Assembly: GCF_947179165.1 (NCBI RefSeq) | Contig: NC_077241.1 | Coordinates: forward strand, 31,987,246-32,051,245 | DNA length: 64,000 nucleotides | Direction of reading: 5' to 3' | Source: Solanum dulcamara | Lineage: Eukaryota > Streptophyta > Magnoliopsida > Solanales > Solanaceae | Shown here: positions 2,907-53,470 of the stretch, in pieces | Numbering within the stretch: the stretch's first letter is position 1 | Layout of the letters: every line of letters starts with the position of its first letter | Notes under the pieces: generated by a model | Databases searched by the model: none | Told to the model about the DNA's origin: nothing | Seen by the model: the letters and a program-made list of their open reading frames with translations, nothing else | Made by a program: the position numbers and the translations under genes

Positions 2907-3144
2907 GGGTCTACATGATATATGATATATGTTATTATGTTATGGCAGCCTTGTCGGCTTACGTGCCCTATGGTGTTGTGGTACAAATGAAAAGGGCTAC
3001 AGGTTTATGAAAATGTTATCGCCCAATGGGGCTTTATTACATGATACTATTTATTTACAGTACAATGTGACCACAGCTGATAGATATGTATACGGGGGGT
3101 CCAGATCGGACCCCAGTCGCGGCTTACGGGGTTGGGTCATGATA
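2906..3144 (+). mobile_element. Remnant of the B1 5' LTR (3' end only)
   Basis: Matches 9880-10116 almost base for base, ending GGGTTGGGTCATGATA against GGGTTGGGTCGTGACA in the 3' copy. The missing 5' three kilobases were lost at a junction with the family F LTR. The words 'tgggt' (2906-2910) at the junction are shared with the intact copy (9879-9883), so the exact breakpoint is ambiguous by about 5 bp. Confidence 0.9.
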
Positions 3145-3148
3145 GAAG

Positions 3149-3162
3149 TGGTATCAGAGCAG
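3149..3162 (+). other. Primer binding site of B1 (initiator tRNA-Met type)
   Basis: TGGTATCAGAGCAG, four bases after the LTR end. This is the common plant gypsy/copia primer site complementary to the 3' end of initiator tRNA-Met. The matching sites in B2 (42558) and B3 (50020) lie at the same spacing. Confidence 0.9.
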
Positions 3163-4606
3163 TTCATCCTCGGATTGTCTGCAGACCGTGTCTAATAGAG
3201 TCTTGGTTATCGATGTGTTGCGCGCCACATCTATAAATAGGAAGCTATAGGATATTTAGGATGTTATTTTTCTTCTATATCTGAGATCGTGCTATAGATC
3301 CGAGTCATAGGAAAATTCCTTATACTAACCTTGGATCTTAATAGAGGGAGGACACCAACAAAGGAGGTAATTGACGACATGGGACATCACGAAGCACGCA
3401 GGTAAGTAAAGTGAAGGCACAGAAGATATCCGTTTGGTAAGGTAGTGAAGTATTATTTGAAATGTAAAGCTGAAACCTGAAGGGAATGCAGTCAGGAAGT
3501 GCAATAGATGCAGTTTGAAGTTGGACATATGAGGTAAGTCCGGTATTTTTATATTATTGTTGACGTTGAAAGCCCTGTGCGGCTGTGACATGAATATATA
3601 TATGTGTTGGCCTTGTAAGGCATTGTTGGTATTTTCTGCGTGCAGGTTTGGGATAAGTAAGAAATATAGAGGAAACTCTGTCAAAATTTTCCTAGGACAA
3701 GAACAGGGAATGAAACGTAGATTTTTAAGATGTCCTGGAGATTGATATTAAGTACCCCTATTATATTCAGTTAAAGTTATAAGAGGTACTCTTCATGTCT
3801 TCAATAAGGGATACTCTTCTTATTCGAGGAAATCATTTTGAAGAAATAAAAGGCTATCTAAGCAGTACAGTTCAGACCGTAGTATCTCCAACAGTAATTA
3901 TGTTGTATAAAAAAAAAGGAGATCCGGTGGAAAGGTAAGATGCCCAATAATTGAGCTTCACTCATTTTGGAAGTACCAAGCCCTCAACTTCTAATTGTAA
4001 ATTAGATAAGTTGTTCCTAACTCGAGATAAACTCAAAAGGAAACCAGGTAGGTCGAGTATAAAAATGGAAATACTATGATGATTAAGGGATTCGAGTCTC
4101 TTCCAACAATGATTGGAAAAGGGTTTACGATAACAGTTCATAGTTTTCCACCGACTAATTGGGGAAAGAGCTTCGAATAGAAGCACCTTAGAGAGATGTC
4201 AGGAACTAAATACGAATACAAATTAAAAAGGGGATATGTAAGTATGAATTGAACAGTGTCATATGAGTATGCAGGGACAAAGTGGAACCACTAGTTAGAC
4301 GCACATAGTAGGCGTTGACTAAGTTAAAGGCCTACGTTGAGAACGCAGTAAGAGCATGGGGCTTACGATACAAAAAATGACGCGTGTACACAATGTCGCC
4401 CCAAAAATAGTGGAACCCTTAAGGGACGAGGATGGAAAACTTAAGGAACAAATGATGCAACGTCTATTCGTCCCAAGAAACAAAGGATATGGGTTGGTAT
4501 AAAGCCACTGCTTCAAGAAAACTTGGAATAGTTATCGTTGGAATACTAGTACTGCCTAATTGAAATTGAACGACTACAAGTACAAACAAATGAAAGTGCG
4601 AGTACC

Positions 4607-4622
4607 CTCTAAAGGGGGGAAG
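4607..4622 (+). other. Internal polypurine-like tract in B1
   Basis: CTCTAAAGGGGGGAAG, nearly the same as the terminal polypurine tract of this family (TTCTAAAGGGAGGAAGG at 6584-6601), yet about 2 kb upstream of it. B2 (44071-44085) and B3 (51761-51777) carry it at the corresponding place. The role is unknown; it could be a central polypurine tract or the scar of an old duplication. Confidence 0.7.
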
Positions 4623-5187
4623 TTAATGAGAAAATGGCAAAAGTAAGGTGAAGGCAATCGATATGGGAATATATCTGAGACGAACGTCTTAACTTCAATA
4701 AGGTATCTTGCCGAACCAAGTTAAGAAGGTTCAGAGGCTACCAATAGTTGGATAGAATCCAGAATGCTACATAAGGCAGCGATAAGAAGTTATGATGAGA
4801 CCCTGAACAACATAACCCTAGAAGGCGGCTACGTATAAAAACAAAATAGTGTAACCATGAAAGGATATCAAATAATTCAAGAGACACTACGAAGGATAAT
4901 GACAACATGCTAGACCAAAAAGCCAAAATATTGGCTATAGAGTTAGTCGCAAATGATGTTGCGATAGATAAATAACCAAAGAAAAAGGAATAAAAAGCCT
5001 CCTGTGGTAGAAAATAAGGAGAACACAAAGTGAATAAAGGATCGTGGAGCTAAAGATCTACGCCGATACTAGATGCAAGATAACAGACGAAAGGATAGGG
5101 CAAAACATAAAGACTCGCGAGACAATGCTGAGGTAAATCTGGAGCTAGTTGAGTGCCCGCACCTCGTGGAAAAGGTTACAATGAAAC

Positions 5188-5300
5188 GCGACACAAAGAC
5201 TTCCCATGGAGGTCACCCATCCCGATATTACTCTCGCCCCAGCACGCTTAACTTCAATATTCTGATGGAACTTAATGCGTTAATGCTGGTGTGATCACGC
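5188..5300 (-). pseudogene. 5S rRNA-derived sequence, antisense inside B1
   Basis: The minus strand matches plant 5S rRNA along nearly its whole length (compared from memory). In order it shows CACCAGCATTAACGCA, CCATCAGAA, TTGAAGTTAAGCGTGCT, GGGCGAGAGTA, GGGATGGGTGACCTCC and ATGGGAAGTC. The internal promoter A box (AAGTTAAGC) and C-box region (GGATGGGTGACC) are still readable. Many scattered substitutions, especially in the first third, show that it is a decayed copy rather than a working gene, and no oligo-T terminator follows in 5S sense. It lies opposite to the strand of B1. B3 has no such sequence at the corresponding point (about 52300-52380). Confidence 0.88.
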
Positions 5301-5399
5301 GAGATGGAAGAATCTGAACTAGCAATGGAGAAATGATATGAGATGATGTACCCAGAGTATTATAAGATACGTTAAGGCAATTCTAACAAGAACTTAAGA

Positions 5400-6430
5400 A
5401 ACACAAGAAGGATTAGCTAATTGCTAACTGACAACACACTTGAATGCCACAGTTCTTCAACATAGAACCAGTTAACGAGTGGAAAACCACAGAATAACAA
5501 TATAGGCCAATTAAAGTTCTGAAAAGAGTCGAGAAAGACTATACGAGGCTAACGGTTCCCAAATTATCCACGTCATTACGCACCCATTTTATACTTGGTA
5601 AGAGTAGGGTGCTATATGAGTTGTTGTGATTAGGCTAAGGAATCAGCCCATTTGCTTCCAATCAAGAGCACCTATGCTGCTGAAATTAGAGGGAGTTATA
5701 GAACATGGAGAATGGTAAGGTTCCGTGAGGTTTCCTCCTCTAATATCCAGGTAAAGGGACTTCAATTATAATTAACGCCTTGAGATCAGTCCAAGAAAAG
5801 GTCAGGAGCACAGACAGGTCTTATACCGCATTTCTCCCTCGAGCTACTAAACTGACTAAGCGCACTATTAGACGCTAGAAGATATGTTATAAGCCGGGAG
5901 ATTAATTTCGAAGGTAGACGGAATGATTATCCATCACTTATCAAGTTGCCTACAATAATAATTACTACTCTAGTATTACAATGGCCTCGACATGATTAAG
6001 CAAGCTACTGACTAAAAGCCCAGAGTCGGCAGGAATGACATACAGATAATCGACGTCGACATACAGAGTTCAAGTTGATGATTGGATGTTCATCATAGAG
6101 TCACCTAGAAAAGGAACTTGACCCAGAATATATTAGACGGTATCAAGTTACTCATAAGGTGAGCAACGTGGCTGGTACGTTAAGCTTACCACCTCAGTTG
6201 GAAACTATATTCCCAGTCTATTAGATACTGACGAGTCACCCAGGGTATATTCCATAAATGAGGTCCAGTAGATGGAATCCTATGAGGAAAATCCTACCAC
6301 CATCCTGGATCGGCAAACTAGAAGATTGTAGACTAAAGACGTATCTTCCGTCAAGTTATGGTGGAAAAACCAAAACCAGAAAGAGGATGATTGGGGAACT
6401 AAAGAGAATATAGAATATAAGTATTTGCAC
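5400..6430 (+). pseudogene. B1 integrase and pol C-terminal remnant
   Basis: Remnant of the integrase end of a gypsy pol, broken by many stops and frameshifts. Visible pieces in order are SAHLLPIKSTYAAEIRG (about 5645-5700, integrase core, normally SAHFLPIK), VAYNNNYYSSI (about 5945), a piece resembling VSNVAGTLSLPPQLE (about 6160-6205), and near 6270-6360 ESYEENPTTILDRQTRRL followed by TKDVSSVKLWWKNQ. The last block is the conserved pol C-terminal tail of Tekay/Del-like plant gypsy elements. Zinc-finger cysteines and the complete catalytic triad cannot be read. Orientation agrees with the LTRs and primer site. Function is lost. Confidence 0.75.
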
Positions 6431-6583
6431 CTGTAACCGATGTCTATAGGTAACTCCAACTCTTGAGAACTCGTATGTTAATAATATAGATGGGAATGCA
6501 TGTGATAGCATAAAGGAAAGGAACCCCTCTATAATTTATATAAAGTCTTACAGAAGGTTGTATTTAACATTCGGGGACGAATG

Positions 6584-6601
6584 TTCTAAAGGGAGGAAGG
6601 A
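6584..6601 (+). other. Polypurine tract of B1
   Basis: TTCTAAAGGGAGGAAGGA directly before the 3' LTR start (TGTTACACCCC at 6602). This is the plus-strand primer of reverse transcription. B2 (44467-44484) and B3 (53608-53623) have the same tract. Confidence 0.85.
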
Positions 6602-9600
6602 TGTTACACCCCACATCTTTGAACTCGGAATGTCCCTTAAGTTACTTAGAAGCTAGCATGTGAGCCACTTAAGTTACGACACTATCAAATGGCTCTAAGG
6701 AAGAGAGAATGTGATACCCCATACTAGAGAAGGTTGGAGATGAAATCATAAGAGTCCGGAAAGAATTGGAGGCTAAGTAATGAGTCGTAGGACTCGATTT
6801 ACCTATGTAAGCTACTAAGTTAAAAGTCATATGCACTTGAGCTACTTAAGCATATATCAAACTTACGTAGCACGGATTACATAGGTACATAAAATAAGAC
6901 GAGATTACGAGCCCACGAGGAAGGGGAAAAAGATGACACGTGGTAGTCAATGAAGAAGCAACACGTGGCAGCACCTCAAGCAAGTAGGTGACCCACCTGC
7001 TTAGGGGGGGTGGACCCCACTGCCATGTGGCAGCCCATAGTTGGCAGCATGATACGGTGGCCCAATAGGGGCTGGACACGTGTCACGTCTTGGGGTTGAC
7101 ACATGTCACACCCTAAAACCACATATATATGTTGTTATATATCATATACTTCAGTTATCCATCAAAACATCAGCCAACATAGAGAAAACAAACGTGAGGG
7201 AGAGAAATAGAGAAGCAGCCATGGTTCTTGAAGTTTAAAGGTTAGTTTTCCAATTTTCTTCCGTGAATTAATTATATACGGTGTACCTTAATTACGTGGA
7301 TACGTATATATGTATTTTAAGTCCTTCATGGAAGTAAAACTCCAGCTTTGCAATTGGAATTTGGAAGAGAAAATAAAAGAAAACGCTAGTTAAAAAACCC
7401 GTTTTTGGAAGGGACAGTGATTAGTAATATTGGTATAAATTCTTGTGTACATTTCGTTTCGAGTGATTTAATATGTTTTGGAAAGGTATTTCATGGTTAT
7501 ATAAATTTCATTCAGACTCCAAAATCCAGTTTTACCTATATCAGCTCGAAAAACGGTGATGAAGTGTAGAGGAGTTACTGCTCGGATTTGGTTTTGGAAA
7601 TTCTACACGGACAGCTGTAAGTATTTTGGTCATATCATTTTGTACAAAATTGATGTAGGGATGATTCGAAATTGTTTTTGACCCTAAGACAGATGTCTAT
7701 AACTTTCATGAAGGACGTAAATCCTGTCTCCCTCGATTACCCCTTCGAAACGAAGCGACAAGGTAAAACAGTAAGCTGTCTAGATTTTACATTTTGGATA
7801 GTTTTGGCGAGTTTGACAAGTTTAACGTAAGGTAAGGTTTCTTCTTTAAATTTGAGCTTTATGTGTTCTGATGGAGCATGTTACACGCCCTATAGGTGGA
7901 TGGAAGTGTGTAAATATCATTAGAATACTTGGCGTTCGGAATAAACTAAAGTGTAGTCGTTATAGTCGAATTGTCGTCAAGGTAAGGCGTTGTTCTTGTG
8001 AGTTGCTGCTACAGGTGTGTGGTGTCTTGTTGAAGGGCCTAAATATGTTCTAATGTGGGTTAGGGTGCTTCTGGTTGAGTCCACATGAACCCCCATTGCG
8101 TATAATTAAAGGCGTTGTAAAATAAAGACTAAACACCCTATTTGATATCATCTTTTTGAATAAGTCATTTGGAGTTTATGTTGTATATTGTTGGTATGAA
8201 TTGCTGCAGGTTGTTGTTGTTGGTTGGCTGTAGGTCTTAGGGACCTAATTGGAAATTTGGATAGGGCACATTATAGGGGAGGTGCTGCCCAATTTTCGTT
8301 AACGCCTTAACAAACTAAAGAACTAGTCGAGGAAACGACTAAGGGAATAGATTCCATTAACATTAAGGCATAACCTCAGATACTGAAAAGTTAAGAGTAG
8401 TTGATATTCGTATTACTTTATATTGAATAGGTTCAGAAGACGACGAGGCGAGCAGGATAAAGGGTAACTCCCAAGAGGTATGTAAAGCTTTCTCTTGGCA
8501 TGTTTTGGTATAGGCTCGTACAGCTATGTTTCTTTCCTTTTGGCTTTAGCCTTAAGTGAATAATGTGTGGAATGTGGGGATAATTCCATTCCCAAAACTC
8601 CAAGTATGCCTCATAACCCCTATCCACTGCTTAGTATTGGAATTTCTGCAAGGATTGGGTGTTGCCTAGTAAGGCTTCTACGTGTTAAACAGTAGTGTGT
8701 GGAAAGCTATCTCTCATTTCCCTTGATATGTATTTGGTACGAGAGTGAGATTATGATGCCATAATGATTCACCGAGCCCCATGATGGGCCGGGTATGAAA
8801 TATGTGTATGCAGATCCCATAAAGGAAAGTACAAACTATATATAGTTTATCCTCTTTCTTCTTCTGGCATGTCTTAGTTGTAGATTAAACATGATATGAG
8901 TTCCAGGGTAAATCTATTCTTCGCATCTCCTATTTACGTCTGAATATCGAACTTTTATAATAATCGAACTATTTCCCTGGAAACTTTTATATGTTAAAAA
9001 GGTAACAAATGTACAGGCTCCAAGTCTTACAGACTATTTGTTAACAAATGTTTCTGGTTCCATGAGCGATTTGGCTTTACTTTAGTACATTTGTAGGAGC
9101 CCCGAGATTATAATTGATATTGCCCATAATGGCATTTAGAAGCCACTCGAGATGACTGCACTACTACTCGAGTCCTCCGACAAAATTTTAATCTTCTTAT
9201 ACGGTCAAGTCTCTAATAATGATTTAAATTGCATATAGTTACTCACTACTCTACTCGTGTATATCATAACACTTCTTTCCTTGAGTCCCGGGCCTGGATA
9301 TGTTCTCGTGCACAGTTCACTGCATTATTCCATGACTCCCTCAATAGAGGGCCAGGATACGTGTATAGATATATGATGATGTATTGTAATAAGGTGGTGA
9401 TGGCACTGAGGCCATGATTGTTTTACAGAGATGATTCACTGGACCCCCGAAAGGGCCGGCTATATGATATGACTCGAACATGCATGTTTTTATAATTCAC
9501 AAAGTACAGGTACAGGTTTCTGAATTGATATCTTATCCCCTATTTTTGTATCTCAGATATGCTTCCAGTTGTATTATATTATGTTTTACATACTCAGTAC

Positions 9601-10116
9601 ATATATCGTACTGACCCCCTTTCTCGGGGGGCTGTGTTCATGCCCACAGGTACATATACATATTTTGGGAGTCCGTCAGCTTAGGATTCTATGCAGCTCA
9701 GTTGGAAGAGGCTCCATTGTATCAGGGCCTAGTTTTTGGTACTTTCCACAGATGTATAAAAATTATTTCGTCCATTCAGGGGTACGGTGGGGGCCCTGTC
9801 CCACCATATGTTGTCATTTATATGTTTAGAGGTCTGCAGACATGTATATGTGGGTTGTGTGTGTCAGTTTGAGTCAGCTGGGTCTACATGATATATGATA
9901 TATGTTATTATGTTATAGCAGCCTTGTCGGCTTGCGTGCCCTATCGTGTTGTGGTACAAGTGAAAAGGGCTACAGGTTTATGAAAATGTTATCGCCCAAT
10001 GGGGCTTTGTTACATGATACTGTTTATTTACAGTACAATGTGACCACAGCTGATAGATATATATACGGGGGTCTAGATCGGACCTCAGTCGCATCTTACG
10101 GGGTTGGGTCGTGACA
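6602..10116 (+). mobile_element. 3' LTR of B1 (3515 bp)
   Basis: Starts TGTTACACCCCACATC after the polypurine tract and ends GGGTTGGGTCGTGACA. It is unusually long. It holds a short array of CAAGTAGGTGA-type words near 6978-7005, a G-box CACGTG at 7077, TATA-like sequence from 7121, an ATG at 7221 followed by a donor-like AAAGGTTAGT at 7237, and a hairpin (ccccc/ggggg) near 9613-9632. The reading frames at 7871, 9229, 9569 and 9902 (+) lie within LTR sequence and have no counterparts in the other copies, so they are not called genes. Confidence 0.88.
7077..7131 (+). promoter_or_regulatory. Putative LTR promoter of B1: G-box then TATA-like
   Basis: CACGTG at 7077-7082 followed about 40 bp later by ACATATATATG at 7121-7131. 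The same order is present in B2 (39877 and 39897), and in altered form in B3. G-boxes bind bZIP/bHLH factors in plants; that this drives LTR transcription is inference. Confidence 0.4.
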
Positions 10117-39017: not shown

Positions 39018-39384
39018 TGTTATACCCCATACTTTTGTACCTTGGCTTGTGTTCTTAAGCTTCTTGAAAATTGTCATATGACCCCTACTAGCTATAATGT
39101 GACTAAAAAATCCTAAGGAAGGGAGGATGAGGCCATCCAAGATGATTGGAAATAGATTTGGAAGGATGTGAAAGGAGGTGGAGGCTAAGTAAAAATTCGT
39201 GCAACCCGACTTACTCGAGTAAGCTACCAACTTAGACATTTTACAAAACTAAGCTACTTGATTGTACGTCGAGATTAGGTAGCAAAGGTTATATAGATTC
39301 ATAAAGTGACAAGAGACTACGAACCTATGAAAAGGAGTAAAAACTAGGTTCTGAACCTACGAAAAGAAGCAAGTAGGTGACAGG
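39018..39384 (+). mobile_element. B3 5' LTR, first part
   Basis: Starts TGTTATACCCCATAC and runs co-linear with 53624-53990, ending in GAAGCAAGTAGGTGACAGG, where B2 begins. The last five bases (ACAGG) are the left copy of the B2 target duplication. Confidence 0.88.
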
Positions 39385-39719
39385 TGTTACACCCCATACT
39401 TTGGTACCTTGGAATGCTTCTTAAGCTTCTTAAGTTTATATGAGTCGGATAATCTATAACGCCATCAAATAATCCTAAGGAAAGGAGAAGGAGATACTCC
39501 ATAATAGAGAAGATTGGAAATAGGGTCATAAGAAACTAGAAGAAGTTGGAGGTCAAGTAGTGAGTCATAGGACTTGACTTACTTGTGAAAGCTATTACTT
39601 GGGACATTTTACATACTAAGCTACTTGAGTATACGCCGAGCTTAAGTAGCAAGGAATACATAGTATCTTGAAGTAAGACGAGATTACGAGCTCACGAAAG
39701 AGAAATAAGGAAACAACGC

Positions 39720-39800
39720 ACCTACTTAAAGCAAGTAGGTGATGCACCTACTTGGACAAGCAGGTGATGAACCTACTTAGAGTCAAGTAGGTAATGCAGC
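39720..39800. repeat. Array of inverted CAAGTAGGTG / CACCTACTTG words
   Basis: cacctactt, aagcaagtaggtgatg, cacctacttgg, caagcaggtgatg, acctacttag, tcaagtaggtaatgcagc: alternating direct and inverted copies of a 10-11 bp word that could fold into hairpins. Equivalent arrays lie at 6978-7005, 44855-44935, 47631-47680 and 53975-54010, with different copy numbers. Confidence 0.85.
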
Positions 39801-39876
39801 AGCTTGGGTGGACCCCACGCTGCCACATGGTGGCTTTGGATTAGATGCATGATTGAGGTGGCGCCCTAGGGGCTAC

Positions 39877-39910
39877 CACGTGTCCCCACTTAAGGACACA
39901 TATATATACA
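39877..39910 (+). promoter_or_regulatory. Putative LTR promoter of B2: G-box then TATA-like
   Basis: CACGTG (39877-39882) then CACATATATATACA (39897-39910). The 3' LTR has lost the G-box (ccagtgtccc near 45008) but keeps the TATA-like run. In B3 the equivalent region has GGTATAAAACC (47760-47770 and 54126-54136). Function inferred only from motif order and conservation. Confidence 0.4.
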
Positions 39911-42557
39911 TGTGTATTGCTGGATCAACTCACTTTTCAGCATCTTTACACTTAAAAATAATTGGAGAAAAACTTGGAGAACATGGAGAGAGAGCTACGG
40001 ATTTGATTAAGCAAGTTAAGACCTCTGATTTCATTCTATAAATTAATTATTTAAGGTATTCTTCGGTTAAGCAAAGGTGTTTAACAACATAAAATTTATC
40101 GTTGGGGTTTCGAGGAGGTTCTCATTCTTATAGTTGGGGTTAAGCAATCAGTTTTTGGAATAAGACCATTATTAGTAATAATAGTATAACTCCTTGTGTA
40201 AAGCTTTGTTTCAAGTGATTCAAGATGTTTTGGAAATATATTTCATAGGGATATAACTTTTATTTATACTATAAAATCCAGTTTTGCTTTTATCTTCTCG
40301 AAAAAGGATGATGAAGTATAGGTGAGGTGCTGCCCAGATTTCGTTTCGAAAATCCTACATAGTCTCCTGTTGGTATTTTAGGCATATCTTTTGGCATAGA
40401 ATTGCTGTAGGGTTGATTCAAAATTGTATGCGACCATAAGACACATGTATATAACTTTAATTGAGGCCACAAATCTTCTTTCCCTAAAATTACCCCATCG
40501 AAACTAAGCGACAATACAAGATAGTAGGCTCTCCAGAATTTACGTTTTGATAGTTTTGCCGAGTTTGACAAGTTTAGGTTAAGGTAAGGGTTTTTCTTTC
40601 AATTCGGAATTTATGGTGTTTTATGAAGTGTATTACACGTTGTGTAAGTGGCTGGAAATATCAAAATTCCATAAATATGCTCGACGTTCGAAACAAACCA
40701 AATTGGAGTCGCTATAGTTAAATTGTAGTCGAAGCAAGGTGTTGTGCTTGTGGTGTGTGGAGGCAGGTGTGTGGTGTGTGTTGCAGGGCATAAATGTGTC
40801 CTAAAAGAGGTGGGGGATATTCTGGTTGTAGCCACACGACACCCCCACTTCGTACGGTTAAAGGTATTGCAAAACGGAAACTAGAAACCTTATTTTGGTA
40901 TCGTGGTTTCGAGCGAGTCATTTAGAGTTTATGTGGTATAAGATTGATGTGAATTGTATATATATATGCTGCAGGTTATTGTTGTTGGTTGGCTGTAGCT
41001 ATTAGGAGTATAATTGGAATTTCGGATAGGGCACATTATAGGGGAAATGCTGCCCGATTTTTGTTAACTCTTTAACTAGTTAGGGAACTAGTCGACAAGG
41101 CGAGCGAGGGGATTAGTTATACAAATACTCCTGTGTAGCCTAAGGTGATGGAAAGACAAGAGTTGTTAATACTCATATTGCTTTTATGTTACTTAGGTTT
41201 AAAGGACGATGAGACGAACAGGATAAAAGGTAACCCGTAACAGGTATGTAAAGCTAACATTTTCTTCTTTCGGCATATTTTGGCATACGTATGTAAGGCT
41301 TATACTTTCTTTTAGCATGTCTTTGGCATATGTATGTAAATCTTATTCATTCTCTTAGCATGATTTGACATAAGTATACAAATCTAATCTCCCTTTTTGG
41401 CATGGTTTTTACGAAGCAAGTATATGAGTTTCATATGATTCCAAAGAAGTTCCTATTCTTAAAGCCACTATGATGACCAATTTCTCGACTTCCAAAAGAT
41501 ATTTTTTTATGCCTTGATGCATATATATGATTCCCAGAAGTTCTATTTTGATATAGTCCATAGTGTCTTTCAAAAGGTACTTAATATGACTTTTGTCTCG
41601 ATTTTGAATGAAAGCTCATTTTGATTATTCCGTCGAGTCTCAAATATGATTTAAATTGCATATAGTTTCTCACTACTCCACTCGTGGATGCCTCAATATT
41701 TCCTTCACCAAGCCCGGGCTAGGTTTTGATATCGTGCGTACTTCTCTACATTGTTCGTCGTGCCCTGACATAAGGGGGCAGGTACGACCTGTCCATGGGA
41801 TTTGTGGAGTTATTATATGCTATTTACACATATGATATGATATTATCTGATATGATATGATATGTTATGGAGATATTCCCTACTCTTGATATATGCTATG
41901 ATGTGGCGCCAGTGATGGGGTGGCGACCATATTTTGTTCACCACATCCTATAATAGGGCCGGATATGGAATATGTTTATCTGCATACATTATTTGTGGTT
42001 ATGAAAAACATTTTGATGTTCTGGGTATTTAGCTCACTTTTGCACCTTTTGTTCTGGTAATGGCTTTAGTTATTACAGTCCATGCTTTACATACTCAGTA
42101 CATATGTCATACTGACCCCCTTTTCTTCAAGGGGCTGCATTTCATGCCCGCAGGTACAGATGTTAACTTTGGAGATCTTCCAACCTAGGGTTTCCACTCA
42201 ACAATGTTGGAAGTGCTCCACTATTCCGGAGCCTAACTTTTGATACTAGTCATTTGATATAATTATTTGTTTATTCAGGGGTACGACGGGGCCCTATCCC
42301 GTTAGATGACTAGGCTAGCATTCTGTAGAGGTCTGTAAACTTGTGATATGGGTTCTGTATATATGTTTTCATCTTTATGTTCCGTGATGGCCTTAACGGC
42401 CTTCGTATGCTACATCTATTTTTGTACGCTCTCTAGCAATTTTTTGTTGATTTTCTTATATGTTTATTTGGCTAACATACTCAGTGGGGCTAAGGGTACA
42501 TATAGGTTCCCTAATCGGACATCAGTCACGGCCTACGGAGTTGGGTCGTGACAAAAG

Positions 42558-42570
42558 TGGTATCAGAGCA
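42558..42570 (+). other. B2 primer binding site
   Basis: TGGTATCAGAGCA, four bases after the LTR end GTGACA. Initiator tRNA-Met type. Confidence 0.92.
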
Positions 42571-44070
42571 GTTCGTCCTTGGAGTGTCTACAGACCATGT
42601 CTAGTAGAGTCTTGTTTATCGGTATGTTGTGCACCACATCTATAAACAGGAGGCTACAGGACATTTAGGATGTTACCTTTGTTTCTTAGCTAAGATCGTG
42701 CGAATGAAATTCCTCATACTAACATATGGTTTTAGCAGAGGGACAATATTGATAGAAGAAGGTGACCGACGATATTGGAAGTTATAAGGTATGCATGTAA
42801 GTAAACGCACGGAAGATATATGTCAGGTGAGGTATTGAAGTATGATTGACATGTAAAGTTAAAAATGGAAAGGAAAAGTAGACAGGGCAGGGTAACAAGT
42901 GCAGTTTGAGTCGGACAGATGAGGTAAGTCCATTTTCATACTGTTGATATTGGGTGCCCTGTGTGGCTACGATATGGGATAATATGATATATATATTTGC
43001 CCTTCGTGGCTGCGGTATGATATGATGCATGCCCTATAAGGCACTGTTGGCATTTCCTGCATGCAGGGGTTGAGACACGGAGAAATACAAAGGAAACTCT
43101 GCCTAAATTTTTCTAGAAATAAAAAAAAAAGAATGAGATGCAGGGTTGTAGTATGTCTTGAAAGGTTGTGCTCACAACAATGATGAGGTTTGACTAAACG
43201 AGTATGGCTGACCTCGAGAAATGAGTTAATTGCTAAAGTAATGGCAATAAAAACTAGATGGTCGATACTGGTATAGTAGAACGAAATTGGAAAAGACTTA
43301 TAAGCCAAAGAAGATGATTTAGAGAAGATTGATGGATTGGGATAAAACGATATATTAAGGCATCGCCTAAATTAATACACAGGGTTAAACGATGACGAGT
43401 TATAGTTGAAAGAAGTAACAGTATGATTAAGACAAGAGTAAAAGGGAAAAAGAATTGTGACGGAAGTGAAGTGTTAATAAGACAGCTTGTGAGATATTAA
43501 GGATAAGACTAACTAAGAAGGGTAAGTAACCTATAGTAAGAATCGTGAAGAAGGTCAAGCAGTGTTATACTATGGGACTAAATGCGAACATGATACCATG
43601 TGAATATAACAAAGGTCATTATGAGAATAAGTAAAAAATAATAAGAAAGTTTTAACAGAGGCACCCAAGAAAGACATAAGTAACTGAATACGAGGATGGA
43701 GCGAAAGGAGAATGTATAGTCATAGATTTACAGGGGTAGTACAACAATATGGTGTCAAGGTAAACCTAGTATTAAGGTAAGCTCGATATGCTGTTGAGAA
43801 AGTGAGCATCGGGTGCCCGACAAACATGAAAGCTCATGAAGCATAAAGATGTATTATATATACGTGACTCGAGTACCAACAATTAGATTGGATTAGCACC
43901 TCACGAGTATGCTAATATGTCGTACATGGGCAACTAAAGGTATGGGTGGTATAAAGAAATGCATAGATAGGGTGCGGTATACCAAAGGTATTGGAAAGGA
44001 ATCTTACGCATTTGAAAATTAGAAATAAGGGCATAAGGTATAACACAAACAGACAATGACATATATACAC

Positions 44071-44085
44071 CCTAAAGGGGGGAAG
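44071..44085 (+). other. Internal polypurine-like tract in B2
   Basis: CCTAAAGGGGGGAAG, equivalent in position to 4607-4622 (B1) and 51761-51777 (B3). The terminal tract of B2 is at 44467-44484 (TTCTAAAGGGGGGAAGGA). Confidence 0.7.
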
Positions 44086-44179
44086 TAGACAAGAGAAGTA
44101 CAAGCGTATGAGAAAATCAACTAACGCTATCATATGTAAATGGGAACGCTTAAACTTCAAACGAGATCCCATAAGGGAT

Positions 44180-44281
44180 GGATGCAATCATACTAGCACT
44201 AACGCACCGGATCCCATCAGAACTCTGAAGTTAAGCATACTTGGGTGAGAGTAGTACTACGATGGGTGACTCCCTGGGAAG
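44180..44281 (+). pseudogene. 5S rRNA-derived sequence in B2, 3' truncated
   Basis: Matches the first about 102 bases of plant 5S rRNA (compared from memory) with about ten differences: GGATGCAATCATACTAGCAC, GCACCGGATCCCATCAGAAC, TGAAGTTAAGC, GAGAGTAGTACTA, GATGGGTGACTCCCTGGGAAG. The last about 18 bases are missing. Several differences are C-to-T or G-to-A, partly at CpG. The A box AAGTTAAGC is intact and the C-box region is slightly altered. Directly after it the sequence rejoins the end of family B pol (compare 6405 in B1). Same strand as the element. It is not a working gene: truncated, with no terminator. Confidence 0.93.
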
Positions 44282-44466
44282 CGAATAAGGAAATGAAACA
44301 CAAGTACTCGTACCTATTCCCTACATCTACAAGTAATCCTAACCTTTAGAACTCTGATATTGATTGCTTGATGAAAGTATATGTTATGGCAACGGGATAG
44401 AGGAACTCTCCATATAGTCGGTATAAGATCCGGAGGAAGGATTTGGTTCAAATTCAAGGATGAATG

Positions 44467-44484
44467 TTCTAAAGGGGGGAAGGA
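44467..44484 (+). other. B2 polypurine tract
   Basis: TTCTAAAGGGGGGAAGGA directly before TGTTACACCCC. Confidence 0.9.
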
Positions 44485-47400
44485 TGTTACACCCCATACT
44501 TTGGTACCTTGGAATGCTTCTTAAGCTTCTTAAGTTTCTGGGAAGGCTCTTAAATTTCGTAGAAGTCGTTATGTGAGTCGGATAATCTATAACGCTATCA
44601 AATAATCCTATGGAAAGGAGAAGGAGATACTCCACAATAGAGAAGATTGGAAATAGGGTCATAAGAAATCGGAAGAAGTTGGAGGTCAAGTAGTGAGTCG
44701 TAGGACTTGACTTACTTGTGAAAGCTATTACTTGGGACATTTTACATACTAAGCTACTTGAGTATACGTCGAGCTTAAGTAGCAAGGAATACATAGGCTC
44801 TTGAAGTAAGATGAGATTACGAGCTCACGAAAGAGAAATAAAAAAACAGCGCACCTACTCGAAGCAAGTAGGTGATGCACCTACTTGGACAAGCAGGTGA
44901 TGCACCTACTTGGATTCAAGTAGGTGATGCAGCAGCTTGGGTGGAACTCATGCTGCCATGTGGCGGCATTGGATTGGATACATGATTGAGGTGGCGCCCT
45001 AGGGGCTGCCAGTGTCCCCACTTAAGGACACATATATATACATGTGTATTGCTGGATCAACTCACTTTTCAGCATCTTTACACTTAAAAACAATTGGAGA
45101 AAAACTTGGAGAACATTGAGAGAGAGCTACGGATTTGATTAAGCAAGGTAAGCCCTCTGATTTCATTCCGTGAATTAATTATTTAAGGTATTCTTCAGTT
45201 AAGCAATGGTGTTTAAGAACATAAAATTTATAGTTGTGGTTTCGAGGAGGTTCTCGTTCTTGTCAACAAACTCGTTTTTGGAATGAGATTGTTATTAGAA
45301 ATAATAGTATAACTCCTTGTGTAAAGTTTCGTTTCAAGTGATTCAAGATGTTTTGAAAAGATATTTCATAGGTATATAACTTTTATTTATACTATAAAAC
45401 CCAGTTTTTCTTTTATCTTCTCTAAAAAGCATGATAAAGTATTGGTGAGGTGCTGCCCAGATTTTATTTTGGAAATCCTACACGGGCTACTGTTGGTATT
45501 TTTGGCATATCATTTTGTATAGAATTGTTGTAGGTTTGATTCAAAATTGTATGCGACCATAAAACACATGTATATAACTTTAATTGAGGCCACAAATCTT
45601 GTTTTCCTAAAATTACCCAATCGAAACTAAGTGACAATACAAGACAGTAGGCTATCCGGAATTCACGTTTTGATAGTTTTGCCGAGTTTGATGAGTTTAG
45701 GTTAAGGTAAGGGTTTTTCTTTCAATTCGGAATTTATGGTGTTTTATGAAGTGTATTACACATTGTGTAAGTTGCTGGAAATATGAAAATTCTATAAATA
45801 TGCTCGACGTTCGAAACAAACCAAATTGGAGTCACTATAGTTAAATTGTAGTCGAAGCAAGGTGTTGTGCTTGTGGTGTGTGGCGGAAGGTGTGTGGTGT
45901 GTGTTGCAGGGCCTAAATGTATCCTAAAAGAGGTTGGGGAGATTCTGGTTGTAGCCACACGACACTACCGCTTCATACGGTTAAAGGTTTTGCAAAACGG
46001 AAACTAGAAACTTTATTTTTGTATCATGGTTTCGAGCGAGTCATTTGGAGTTTATGTGGTATAAGATTGAAGTGAATTGTATGTATATATGCTGAAGGTT
46101 ATTTTTGTTGGTTGGCTTTAGCAATTGCTGCCCGATTTTTGTTAACTCTTTAACTAGTTAGAGAACTAGTCGACAAGGCGAGCGAGGAGATGAGTTCTAC
46201 AAATACTCCTGTGTAGCATAAGGTGATAGAAAGACAAGGGTTGTTAATACTCGTATTGCTTTTATGTTACTTAGATTTAAAGGACGATGAGATGAATGGG
46301 ATAAAAAGTAACCCGTAAAAGGTATGTAAAGCTAACATTTTCTTCTTTTGGCATGTTTTGGCATACGTATGTAAGGCTTAAACTTTCTTTTAGCATGTAT
46401 TTGGCATAAGTATGTAAATATTATTGCTTCTCTTAGCATGATAAGACATAAGTATACAAAGCTAATCTCCCTTTTTGGCATGGTTTTTCTGAAGCAAGTA
46501 TATGACTTTCATATGATTCTAAAGAAGTTCCTATTCTTAAAGCCATTAGGATGGCCAATTTCTCGACTTCCAAAAGATATTTTGTTATGCCTTGATACAT
46601 ATATATGATTCCCAGAAGTTTTATTTTGATATAGTCCATAGTGACTTTCAAAAGGTACCTGATATGACTTTTGTCTCAATTTTGAATGAAAGATCATTTT
46701 GATTATTCCGTCGAGTCTCAAATATGATTTAAATTGCATATTGTTTCTCACTACTCCACTAGTGGATACCTCAATGTTTCCTTCACCGAACCTGGGCCAG
46801 GTTTTGTTATTGTGCATACTTCTCTACATTATTCATCATACCCCGACGTGAGGGGGCAGGTACGACCTGTACATGGGATTAGTGGAGTTATGATGTGCCA
46901 TGTACACATATGATATGATATGATCTGATATGATCTATTACGGAGATATTCCCTACTCTTGATGTATGTTGTGCTATAGCGCCAATGATGGGGTGGCGAC
47001 CATATTTTGTTCATCACGTCCCATAATGGGGCCGGATATGGCATATGTTTATCCGTATACATTATTTGTGGTTATGAAAAACATTTTGATGTTCTGGGTA
47101 TTTAGCTCACTTTTGCACCTTCTGTTCTGGTAATGGCTTTACTTGTTACAGTCCATGCTTTACATACTCATTACATATGTCGTACTGACCCCCTTTTCTT
47201 CGAGGGGATGCATTTCATGCCCGCAGGTACAGATGTTAACTTTGGAGATCTGCCATCCTAGGGTTTCCACTCAGCAATGTTGGAAGTGCTCCACTGTTCT
47301 GGAGCCTAACTTTTGATACTAGTTATTTGATATAAATGTTTGTTTATTAAGGGGTACGACGGGGCCCTGTTCCGTCAGATGACTAGGCTAGCATTCTGTA

Positions 47401-47625
47401 GAGGTCTGTAGACTTGTGATGTGGGTTCTGTATATATGTTTTAGGCTTTATATTTTGTGATGACCTTAACGGCCTTCATATGCTACATATATTTTCGTGC
47501 GCTCTCTAGTGATTTTTTTTTATTTCCTTATATGTTTATTCGGCTAACATACTCAGTGGGGCTAAGGGTACGTATGGGTGCCCTAATCAGACACCAGTGA
47601 CGGCCTACGGAGTTGGGTCATGACA
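44485..47625 (+). mobile_element. B2 3' LTR
   Basis: Co-linear with 39385-42553. It ends GAGTTGGGTCATGACA, then the target duplication ACAAG and the resumption of the B3 LTR. A donor-like AGCAAGGTAAG lies at 45142, and the hairpin near 47187-47208. Confidence 0.92.
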
Positions 47626-47630
47626 ACAAG

Positions 47631-50015
47631 TAGGTGACTCACCTACTTGGGGTAAGTAGGTGACCCACCTACCTGGGGTGGGCCCCAAGCTACCACATAG
47701 CAGCTAAGGAAGGGACACATATCACCCTAGGGTCTGCCATATGTCACTCTTAAAGGAAGGGTATAAAACCCTAAGTCATGACTAAGTGTTCTAATTTTCA
47801 GCTTTGTACTTAGACATATTTTTAGCTTGTTACTTAGAACTATTGAGAGCAACTTGAAGAGAATAAGAACAAGAGAGAAACGACCATGGCAGCAAGGTGA
47901 GGCCTTCAATTTCACTCCATCAATTACTTATATAAGGTATTCTTCATATAAATGAAGGTGCTTAGCAATGTAAAGTTTGATAGTTTGAGCGGCAAAGAGT
48001 TTTGATGTAAACCTACAACTTTTGGCAAGTTTCGGAAGCTCGCTTGCTAAGGTATGGCTTGATTCCCTTCTCCCACATTTGGTCAAGTGTACAAACATGT
48101 TGTGGGTGTATAAATATAAGTTGGAAATGTGAAAATATGCACGTTATGCCTGAAGGATGTTGCAGGTCATGTAGAGACTGTTTTGGCGCTATTCTAGGAA
48201 ATGAAAAGCAGCACATGAAAGCCTGTCTCTTCTTACTTGTGGAAAGACTTGACTGTATGTAATGTAGGATAGGGATTTGAAGGTAACTCCCTTATAGACT
48301 CTAGGTATCACTCGTGACTTGTTGGCACTTTTGAATATTAAGAGTCTTAAAATGGTTCGACCACTACTCCTGAGCCACCTTATGTTGAATAGTAAAGGGA
48401 GATACAAGCTCCTCTTCCTAAAGGCTCTGAAATGATCAATGTCTCCAATTGCATAAACTGTGCCTCTGATTGCATAAGTTGAGTCTCTGACCGCGTAAGT
48501 AGTGTTTATGATTGCATAAACTATGCTTCTGAATGCATAAATTGTGTGGCATTATCTTGATGCATGTTTGTGATCTCTGAGGCCCCAGCTGATGTGAACC
48601 TAATGATATCTAAAGGGGTACCTCAGATAATTACTCCCTGGGTCTTCAGATTATGGTTCACTTGACTATTTTATCGAGTCTCAGATGATGACTTAGTTGC
48701 ATATGGTATCTCACTACTCCACTCATGCATGCTGTAACCGTTCTTTCTCCGCGACCCACGATGGGCCAAAAATTATATCGGGCACAACTTTACTACTCCT
48801 TCACCAAGTCTCGGGCCAGCTATATATATATGTCTGAAGTATACAATGATGAAATACCATATATGATGAAGTTAAAGCATACGATGAAGCCGTATGTTAT
48901 GATGTTATTCATTGAGTCCCAAGCTGGATATATATATATAATAATATGATGAAAATATGGATTGAGTCGTACGTTCCATGATATTATTTTAAATTATGGA
49001 TCGGGCTGAATGTTCGTTGGTATATTTTACCATGTGATAATGGCACCGAGTCCCTCCCTAGAGGGTTGGGTATGGTATATATATATACAATGATGGTACG
49101 TTATAAACGTACACTACTCCCTTCACCGAGTCCCTCACTAAAGAGTCGGATACTTTACGTAGGCATGCATATGAAAATATAGGGATACATTTGTGACCCC
49201 GAGTCCCATAGTAGACCGGATATAATATAATGACATATACGATAATATTATATCGTATACAATGATATGATGTAGTATACAATGACATGATGAAATAATA
49301 TACATAATGGAAAGAGATGATGACATGATGATATGATGATATGGTATTATGATGAAATAATTATGACACTGAGTTCCTTAGTAGGCCGGGCACAGTATAT
49401 GATGATGTATATGATTACATGTCCTAAGGTGCTGGTACAGTAATTTGTTAATTGTTATACTTGTACCCTGCATCCCTGGTTTAGCTATGGTCTCAGTTAT
49501 GATGTGTTATACTTTACATACTCAGTACATATATCATACTGACCCCTCTTTCTTTGGGGGAATGCATTTTATGCCCGCAGGTACAGGTAGTTACTTTGGA
49601 GATCCGCCAGCTTAGGGTTTCCACGCAGCGATTTGGAAGCACTCCATTGTGCCGAAGCCCAGATTTTGGTACTGACCCTTGATGTATATGTTTTTTTATT
49701 CATGGGTACGGCGAGGGCCCTGTCCCACCATATATTACCATTGATATTCTTAGAGGTCTCTAAACATATGTATGTGCGTTGTTTACAACTTTGTTTCATC
49801 TGTGCCTATACGGCGTGTTATATTTGTTACTATGCTATGGCAGCCTTGTCGGCTTGCACGCGTTTTCATGGTAAGATACAAATGAAAGAGGCTTCATGTA
49901 TGTCAAAATATTATCAACCACTAGGGTTCTGGTGTATAGTTCTTATATCGGATAGTTATGTATATGGGGGTCCAGATCGGACCCCAATTACGGCCTATGG
50001 GGTTGTGTTGTGACA
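47631..50015 (+). mobile_element. B3 5' LTR, second part (with a deletion)
   Basis: Continues the B3 LTR after B2: word array 47631-47680, TATA-like GGTATAAAACC at 47760-47770, ATGGCAGCAAGGTGAG at 47886, and end TTGTGTTGTGACA at 50015. At 48191-48200 (ATTCTAGGAA) it jumps over about 700 bp present in the 3' LTR (54557-55268). The region 48930-49400 is rich in 'atgatatgatg' microsatellite-like repeats. Short frames here are not genes. Confidence 0.85.
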
Positions 50016-51760: not shown

Positions 51761-51777
51761 CCTCTAAAGGGGGGAAG
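51761..51777 (+). other. Internal polypurine-like tract in B3
   Basis: CCTCTAAAGGGGGGAAG, matching the B1 and B2 internal tracts. The terminal tract is TTCTAAAGGGGGAAAGA at 53608-53623. Confidence 0.7.
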
Positions 51778-52589: not shown

Positions 52590-53470
52590 GAAAGCCAAAA
52601 GGTAGAGTACCAGTTAAAGTCTTCTAAGGAAGTTAAAGAGTAATACATGAGGTCTCCACAGCTACTGTCTCAAGTAAAGGGGCTTAATTTACAGCTATCA
52701 TTTGGATATCATCCTAAGAAGAGATCAGGAACACAGGTAGGTCTTAGTACCGCCTTTCACCCTCAAAGCTGATGAATAGGCTAAAAGTACTACTTAAATG
52801 CTAGAAGATATGTTGTGAGCTGGTGTTATTGAATTTGAAGGTAGTTGGGATGATTATCTACAACTTATCAAGTTGCCTACAATAATAGCTACCACTCCAG
52901 TATCCAAATGGCCCCGTACAAGACTTGTAGGATAGGACATATAAGTCCCCTATTGGCTGGGTTGATGTTAGAAAGACTAAGCTAGTAGACCCAGATATGA
53001 CTAAGTAAGCTATTAACTAGCAGCCCAGAGCCGGCAAAATAGATATGCTAATAATCGACGTCAACATTCAGAGTTCAAATTGATGATTGGGTGTTCTTAA
53101 AGGGGTCACCCAAGAAGGGAGTTGTAAGATTCGGCAAGAAAAGGAAACTTAGGTCAAAATACATTAGACCTTATCAAGTTGCTCCTAAGATGGAAAAAGT
53201 TAACCGTAAGTTGGACTTACCACCTGATTGACAAATTGTATGCCAAGTCCATCAGATACTGATGCTTCAAAAATATACTGCTGATCCACCCAGAGTATGT
53301 CCCCTAAATGATGTCCACAAAATGTAAGAGTTATCCTATGAGGAATAGCCTATCACCATCTTGGATCGGCAAATTTAAAGGTTGAGGACTAAGGACGTGA
53401 ATTCCATCAAGGTATTGTGGCAAGACAAAGACCAGAGAGGGGATGACTTGGGAAGTCAAAAAGGAGATAG
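52590..53470 (+). pseudogene. B3 integrase and pol C-terminal remnant
   Basis: Broken integrase end. LSTAFHPQS (about 52745-52770, normally followed by DGQxERTIQ; here the motif is destroyed by a stop), VAYNNSYHSSIQMAPYKTCR (about 52873-52930), VRKTKLVDPDMT (about 52967), then the tail LSYEE, PITILDRQI, RLRTKDVNSIKVLWQDKDQR (53330-53440). Same order as B1 at 5600-6400. Many stops. No RT or RNase H motif is seen upstream. There is no 5S sequence in this copy. Confidence 0.75.

What the first reader, a model, noticed from the sequence alone, without database searches (positions are those of the whole stretch)
44180..44281. 5S rRNA piece where pol is missing in retrotransposon B2
Seen: about 102 bp of near-5S sequence lies between family B sequence corresponding to about 4720 of B1 and family B sequence corresponding to about 6405 of B1; the roughly 1.7 kb between those points is absent from B2. 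Known: Cassandra elements carry 5S in their LTRs, but this one is in the internal region of a gypsy-type element. Inference: the 5S piece was captured as filler during repair of a break, or by template switching to 5S RNA during reverse transcription.
Basis: partly seen in the sequence, partly recalled or inferred. Interest (0 to 1): 0.75.

Follow-up and report, generated by a model that had tools for sequence, protein, structure and literature searches.

The report
Retrotransposon family carrying captured 5S RNA
A long plant retrotransposon seems to have copied part of the host's 5S ribosomal RNA into its own middle, probably when its copying enzyme jumped between RNA molecules; the fused element then spread to hundreds of places, while a related family carries an older 5S copy pointing the other way.

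Summary
The 5S piece is real: 44180-44281 matches Rfam 5S_rRNA (61 bits) and corresponds to nt 1-102 of the genome's own 5S gene. It is not single-copy filler. Its 5' junction pattern occurs 476 times genome-wide (reversed-pattern control 0), and 20 of 20 other copies read carry the 5S at the same place in a long-LTR, protein-less element. The chimera transposes as a unit.

The piece starts at the 5' end of 5S RNA and stops at TGGGAAG, where it joins Trp-Glu codons near the end of a chromovirus-type pol. Best reading: minus-strand reverse transcription switched onto 5S rRNA at a 7-9 nt match, ran off its 5' end and returned ~1.7 kb upstream. The 5S-bearing 3' module also sits in a diverged backbone, L019. 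A C-box change before the burst suggests a passenger rather than a promoter.

In the copy read, the Pol III boxes are better kept (3 of 39 positions changed against 26 of 80).

The parts
39385..42553 (+). 5' LTR of e2 (TGTTACACC...GTGACA)
   Evidence: Self-comparison, ends read; 3106 aligned positions with the 3' LTR, 243 differences, K2P 0.083
42558..42569 (+). Primer binding site TGGTATCAGAGC
   Evidence: Exact match; that it pairs with initiator-Met tRNA is recalled; it is also the end of the Cassandra search string in PMC7215508
42554..44484 (+). Internal region of e2, 1.93 kb, no Pfam match in any of six frames
44072..44085 (+). Second, internal PPT-like motif CTAAAGGGGGGAAG, shared with e1 (G-run at 4614) and e3 (G-run at 51769)
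44155..44179 (+). 5' junction: element sequence CTTCAA...TAAGGGAT up to 5S nt 1, with about 11 bases absent from e1 and e3
   Evidence: Three-way alignment; junction pattern found 476 times, control 0
44180..44281 (+). 5S rRNA nt 1-102, sense
   Evidence: Rfam RF00001 61.4 bits; 92% to native 5S
44275..44350 (+). 3' junction (TGGGAAG, 5S nt 96-102) and pol C-terminal tail (WE...KYSYLFP...)
   Evidence: Translations of e2, e3 and five other copies; word TGGGAAGTC shared by native 5S and e3
44471..44484 (+). Polypurine tract before the 3' LTR
44485..47625 (+). 3' LTR of e2; ACAGG left of the 5' LTR and ACAAG right of the 3' LTR, a 5-bp target duplication with one mismatch
5183..5302 (-). Full-length antisense 5S-like sequence in e1, Pol III box string kept, TTTT 9 nt downstream
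   Evidence: Rfam 59.3 bits
3143..6601 (+). Internal region (limits approximate) of e1 ('B1'), the related element that keeps the ~1.7 kb
6108..6224 (+). Integrase-tail SH3 (PF24626) relic in e1, inside the stretch missing from e2
   Evidence: 21.5 bits, below the cut-off of 30
53085..53276 (+). Integrase-tail SH3 (PF24626) relic in e3
   Evidence: 44.1 bits, cut-off 30

Best explanation
e2 belongs to a high-copy, protein-less, long-LTR (LARD-like) family descended from a chromovirus-type Ty3/gypsy element. In one reverse-transcription cycle, minus-strand synthesis came in from the 3' end, reached conserved Trp-Glu codons (TGGGAAG) near the end of pol, and switched to a host 5S rRNA at the same word (nt 96-102). 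It copied the 5S RNA to its 5' end and, out of template, switched back to element RNA about 1.7 kb further upstream. The product kept PBS, PPT and LTRs, so helpers could mobilise it, and it amplified to hundreds of copies. Reverse-transcription recombination also moved the 5S-bearing 3' module between backbones, as seen in L019. In the main burst the 5S is most likely a passenger: a C-box change was fixed first, helix I lacks its 3' strand, and a Pol III transcript from there would lack most of the element. Shown: the fusion, its boundaries, its amplification, the module in two backbones, the C-box change. Inferred: RNA as template, order of the switches, helper mobilisation, module exchange, passenger status.
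For: Sense orientation, starting at 5S nt 1 (0-3 nt ambiguity because the native spacer also ends in GAT). Stop at nt ~102 inside a 7-nt match (TGGGAAG; TGGGAAGTC, 9 nt, in e3) to pol-tail codons; this is the longest word shared by 5S and e3's missing region plus tail, and the only run of 7 or more in the 5S x e3-tail table (its own 10 cells, 3.2e-4 of the table). A ~1.7-kb deletion coupled to the insertion. 476 copies of the 5' junction pattern, control 0. 20 of 20 other copies read have it. All 21 rows share C15T, C47T and C67T against native 5S, and 19 of 21 share G81C, so one captured 5S was ancestral. L019 against the window: module K 0.083-0.091 but LTR start K 0.28, where 18 other copies have module 0.062-0.081 and LTR 0.051-0.099 (L025 0.091 and 0.14). 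The two elements' own LTR pairs (0.113, 0.083) predict ~0.10 from post-insertion decay alone. Template switching in plant LTR elements is published (PMC1950507, abstract); 5S/LINE-1 chimeras commonly have the 5S start at the joint (PMC13174262, passages).
Against: The 5' boundary is compatible with up to 3 nt of 5S spacer, so DNA as source is not excluded. About 11 extra bases at the 5' junction, overlapping an 8-nt word of 5S (nt 31-38), are not explained by two clean switches (2.7% of random 22-mers of the internal region share such a word). e1 has TGGGGAAC, not TGGGAAG, at the 3' site. No e2-lineage copy without 5S was identified, so the immediate parent is unknown; e1 and e3 are only ~65-78% alike to e2 in aligned stretches. 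The search for an unfused pol tail gave 117 places, at least 7 of the 100 listed being fused copies, and could not be resolved. The 3' junction count did not complete. The 20 copies are the best-ranked hits of a query that contained the 5S. Strong constraint on the module in the masters could also give the L019 pattern.
Confidence: 0.68

Rival explanations
1. DNA-level capture: a broken genomic copy of the element was repaired with a fragment of 5S rDNA (filler or synthesis-dependent annealing), losing 1.7 kb, and this locus later became the source of the burst.
For: Microhomology and a short extra filler-like stretch at the 5' junction; the GAT before nt 1 is also found in the native spacer.
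Against: A break in a 341-bp rDNA unit would fall within 0-3 nt of the RNA 5' end by chance in about 1% of cases (4/341, post hoc). The repaired locus must then also have become a master.
Confidence: 0.2
2. The 5S piece is a selected Pol III promoter module, as in Cassandra, and that is why the family spread.
For: nt 50-97 with A box, IE and C box are included (box limits recalled); one diverged copy, L019, fits the published Cassandra promoter string; without C-to-T and G-to-A changes the 5S varies slightly less (0.0084) than its flanks (0.012-0.018; not tested formally).
Against: The 5S lies at the 3' end of the internal region; a transcript from there would lack most of the element and first meet TTTT at 44740. 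The string fails in the window copy and in 20 of 21 other pieces, always through the C box. Over all changes the 5S is more diverse (0.044) than its flanks (0.032-0.040). The window piece folds no better than shuffles (z +1.06).
Confidence: 0.08
3. A 5S-derived SINE or a piece of a Cassandra LTR inserted into the element.
For: Both are known kinds of 5S-bearing retroelements (PMC10886601, PMC10853983).
Against: By eye no target duplication or tail around the piece; the family 5S differs from the host's own at only 4 of 102 positions along its whole length; the insertion goes with a 1.7-kb loss. Cassandra itself was not searched for in this genome.
Confidence: 0.03

Closest known systems
Cassandra and other Pol III-promoter TRIMs (Helenus, Ajax; 'TRIMp3')
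   Same: Protein-less LTR retrotransposons; Cassandra and Ajax carry a 5S-derived sequence, Helenus a tRNA-derived one (PMC10886601, abstract and Discussion; PMC10853983, passages and section 21).
   Different: There the small-RNA sequence sits in short LTRs of elements below ~1.3 kb. Here 5S is in the internal region of an 8.2-kb element with 3.1-3.2-kb LTRs, cut at nt 102 and with a changed C box in the main family.
LARDs (large retrotransposon derivatives, e.g. Sukkula)
   Same: Non-autonomous LTR elements with an internal core but no proteins (passages of PMC7215508); long LTRs and multi-kilobase core are recalled features.
   Different: No LARD with 5S was seen in the listings named in the report; e1 and e3 keep a pol-tail relic.
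Template-switch LTR retrotransposons of Triticeae (Sabot and Schulman 2007)
   Same: Composite elements attributed to template switching in reverse transcription (PMC1950507, outline and abstract).
   Different: Those fuse two retrotransposon parents; here the second template is a host Pol III RNA and the product amplified.
5S rRNA/LINE-1 chimeras in mammals
   Same: Host 5S RNA joined to a retroelement, 5S start at the joint and truncation inside 5S (PMC13174262, passages).
   Different: Non-LTR mechanism, typically antisense; 27 insertions catalogued, no amplified family in the passages seen.
Ty3/gypsy chromoviruses (Tekay/Del type)
   Same: Integrase-tail SH3 relic in e3 and e1 and a Trp-Glu C-terminal tail (the tail is recognised from memory).
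   Different: No gag, RT or integrase core found; lineage not tested.

Membership tests
Rfam 5S_rRNA (RF00001) sequence | Score above the gathering threshold | tested here: met
   61.4 bits (e2) and 59.3 bits (e1) against 38
Rfam 5S_rRNA (RF00001) sequence | Complete molecule with closing helix I (e2) | tested here: not met
   5S identity ends at nt 102; the remaining columns are element sequence
Cassandra / TRIMp3 | Small-RNA sequence inside the LTR | tested here: not met
   5S lies 203 bp before the 3' LTR in e2 and mid-internal in e1
Cassandra / TRIMp3 | Miniature size (under about 1.3 kb) | tested here: not met
   e2 spans 39385-47625, 8.2 kb
Cassandra / TRIMp3 | Pol III A box and C box string (from PMC7215508) | tested here: not met
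   Fails in the window e2 copy and in 20 of 21 other e2 pieces; met by L019 and by the antisense e1 sequence
LARD | Long LTRs, PBS and PPT | tested here: met
   LTRs of 3169 and 3141 bp, PBS 42558, PPT 44471-44484
LARD | Internal domain without proteins | tested here: met
   No Pfam match in six frames of e2; in three forward frames of e1 and e3 only the SH3 relic and a sub-threshold FerA line
LARD | Conserved RNA structure of the core | not tested
   Not attempted
LARD | Mobilised in trans | not testable with these tools
   Inferred from absence of coding capacity and high copy number
Ty3/gypsy chromovirus | RT, integrase and chromodomain | tested here: not met
   Only PF24626 relics and a C-terminal tail
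5S-derived SINE (SINE3) | 5S head, tail and target duplication | tested here: inconclusive
   No tail or duplication seen by eye around the 5S piece; no formal search

The most novel reading that the evidence does not exclude
Related long-LTR retrotransposons in this plant recurrently recruit 5S rRNA. The older antisense 5S in e1-type elements is kept as a working Pol III unit. Genomic RNA that carries antisense 5S pairs with host 5S rRNA, draws it into the particle, and so set up the later sense capture seen in e2.
Probability: 0.08. Interest if true: 0.87.

Novelty: new variant of a known kind. Interest (0 to 1): 0.6.

Why it matters
Retroelements that carry host Pol III RNAs are known, but how the joining happened is usually debated. 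Here the family's 5S still differs from the host gene at only 4 of 102 positions, both joints can be read against relatives, and one joint falls on Trp-Glu codons of the pol tail. That makes host-RNA capture by LTR retrotransposons testable. Two related families bearing 5S in opposite orientations, with different fates of the promoter, suggest that such capture recurs. It also warns that hundreds of dispersed 5S-like sequences in this genome are retrotransposon parts, not 5S genes.

Tried and rejected
Rejected: unique filler DNA (476 junctions); chance 5S resemblance; origin of the e2 piece by inversion of the e1 piece (the e2 family differs from native at 4 of 102 positions, the e1 copy at 29 of 119); working pol in the missing 1.7 kb. 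Copy L010 loses similarity upstream of the 5S because another element is inserted there.

Led nowhere: compensatory pairing as proof of a functional e1 5S RNA (3 compensatory pairs, P 0.04; broken pairs 3, P 0.15); RNA folding (e2 z +1.06, e1 z -1.13, native z -1.66); the count of unfused pol tails; an ORF Pfam scan whose only line was a sub-threshold VASt hit. One search stopped with an error before its comparison copy L014; redid this for 20 copies, with LTR starts placed by a fixed offset (up to 3 nt off). The species was not identified; that the host is a flowering plant is inferred from the 5S sequence, the elements and the genome size.

Full report
WHAT IS THERE. Against the genome's own 5S arrays (341-bp units on contig C7) the first piece is nt 1-102 and ends at 44281. 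The window lies at G000:C5:31987246-32051245 of a 942-Mb genome.

ANATOMY. Three related long-LTR elements lie in the window. e2 ('B2'): LTRs 39385-42553 and 44485-47625, PBS at 42558, PPT before 44485, internal region of 1.93 kb; LTR pair K2P 0.083; flanks ACAGG/ACAAG, a 5-bp target duplication with one mismatch. e2 sits inside the 5' LTR of e3 (39018-39384 plus 47626-50015; internal to ~53623), whose 3' LTR shows the uninterrupted site. e1 ('B1'): internal ~3143-6601, 3' LTR ~6602-10116. The longest stop-to-stop frames touching the internal regions are 140 aa (e1), 146 aa (e2, reaching into the LTR) and 116 aa (e3). Pfam (stops as X) gave nothing in six frames of e2 and, in three forward frames of e1 and e3, an integrase-tail SH3 relic, PF24626 (e3 44.1 bits, e1 21.5 bits, cut-off 30), plus a sub-threshold FerA line in e3.

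THE JOINTS. e1 and e3 lack the 5S at the e2 place and have ~1.7 kb there (e1 ~4707-6391). On the left, element sequence (CTTCAA...TAAGG.AT) runs to 5S nt 1, with ~11 bases that e1 and e3 lack. On the right, 5S ...TGGGAAG runs into what e3 reads as TWEVKKEIEKRYSYLFP and several e2 copies as WEAKEEMKHKYSYLFP. I recognise this as the C-terminal tail of chromovirus pol from memory; the SH3 hit upstream in e3 supports it. The longest word shared by 5S and e3's missing region plus tail is TGGGAAGTC, exactly at the joint; it is the only run of 7 or more in the 5S x e3-tail table. In e2 copies the base after TGGGAAG is C or T, so 7-8 nt are safe. e1 reads TGGGGAAC there, and its longest sense word shared with 5S is another one of 8 nt.

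A FAMILY, NOT AN ACCIDENT. A 301-bp query over the piece gave 40 scored hits (the window plus 39 others, 91-94%) of 4117 candidates. I read 20 of the 39; 20 of 20 have the 5S between the same flanks. These were the top-ranked hits, so the sample favours close copies. The 5' junction pattern (2 mismatches allowed) occurs 476 times, the reversed control 0. Copies lacking the 5S were not counted, and the 3' junction count did not complete.

HISTORY. Relative to native 5S all 21 rows (20 copies plus window) carry C15T, C47T and C67T; G81C is in 19 of 21, L024 has T and L019 keeps G. L019 has a diverged backbone: LTR start K 0.28 and internal 5' part K 0.19 against the window, but only 0.083-0.091 across the ~425-bp module from the internal PPT to the PPT. 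Of the other 19 copies, 18 have module K 0.062-0.081 and LTR K 0.051-0.099; L025 has 0.091 and 0.14. The LTR pairs of L019 (0.113) and of the window element (0.083) predict ~0.10 from decay since insertion alone. So the module was about identical in both masters while their LTRs were not. Exchange by reverse-transcription recombination is the simplest reading; strong constraint on the module is the alternative.

MECHANISM. Minus-strand synthesis on element RNA, a switch to 5S rRNA at TGGGAAG, copying to the RNA's 5' end, and a switch back upstream explains the sense orientation, the start at nt 1, the internal stop with microhomology and the coupled deletion. Chance placement within 0-3 nt of nt 1 in a 341-bp unit is about 1% (post hoc). 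Not explained: the ~11 extra bases, overlapping the 8-nt word GATCCCAT of 5S (2.7% of random 22-mers share such a word).

FUNCTION. The published Cassandra promoter string (RGTTAAGYRHGY, 15-25 nt, RRRATRGGTRACY; passage of PMC7215508) fits native 5S, fails in the window copy, the family majority and 20 of 21 other e2 pieces (20 loci, L027 twice), and fits L019. Over all changes the 5S is more diverse than its flanks (0.044 against 0.032-0.040); without C-to-T and G-to-A it is slightly less so (0.0084 against 0.012-0.018), which I did not test formally. A Pol III transcript from 44180 would first meet TTTT at 44740 and lack most of the element. I therefore read the e2 5S as a passenger.

THE OTHER 5S. 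The e1 antisense sequence is full-length, differs from native at 29 of 119 positions, and its region (5080-5420) has 40 scored hits (the window plus 39 at 93-94%) over practically the whole query, of 2689 candidates. One edge occurs 665 times, control 0. Changes avoid the promoter boxes (3 of 39 positions against 26 of 80, Fisher P 0.003, composition-matched P 0.004; box limits 50-64, 67-72, 80-97 recalled). The promoter string is kept (P 0.022 under matched random change), and TTTT lies 9 nt downstream in the antisense direction. Structure support is weak. Only the window copy of e1 was read; with copies at 93-94%, a few of the 29 changes are likely its own. Its antisense orientation does not fit a simple minus-strand switch, so its origin is open. 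e3 lacks it, in a poorly aligned stretch.

PRINT. In the listings of searches (15 of 56 shown) and 116 of the open-licence PMC library I saw no title, abstract start or passage that reports an LTR element with 5S in its internal region. Beyond listings I saw: PMC10886601 (outline, abstract, Discussion), PMC10853983 (passages, section 21), PMC7215508, PMC13174262, PMC7076952 and PMC4918200 (passages), PMC1950507 (outline, abstract). Subscription papers and preprints are not held, so absence there is not shown.

VERDICT. Observation confirmed, interpretation partly supported: an amplified sense-5S chimera best explained by template switching, next to an older, antisense and, in the copy read, promoter-conserving 5S in a sister family.

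Noticed in passing
window 5183-5302 (-): Full-length antisense 5S-like sequence in B1 with conserved Pol III box string and a downstream TTTT; one edge pattern found 665 times in the genome.
   Followed up: partly
window 44072-44085; G-runs at 4614 and 51769: A second PPT-like motif (CTAAAGGGGGGAAG) inside the internal region of all three related elements; the 5S-bearing module shared with L019 begins near it.
   Followed up: no
G000:C5:23919041-23946436: Four e1-type matches spaced about 9,018 bp apart on one strand, suggesting a tandem array of elements or a segmental repeat.
   Followed up: no
G000:C7:45935698-45953009: Three e2 5' junctions spaced 8.6-8.7 kb apart on one strand, possibly LTR-sharing tandem elements.
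   Followed up: no
L027:3062-3161 and 4470-4571: Two 5S modules 1.4 kb apart on the same strand in one locus.
   Followed up: no
L025: A copy whose LTR start is clearly more diverged (K 0.14) than in 18 other copies, possibly a second recombinant.
   Followed up: no
window 39018-50015: e2 is nested in the 5' LTR of e3, giving relative ages of the two insertions.
   Followed up: partly
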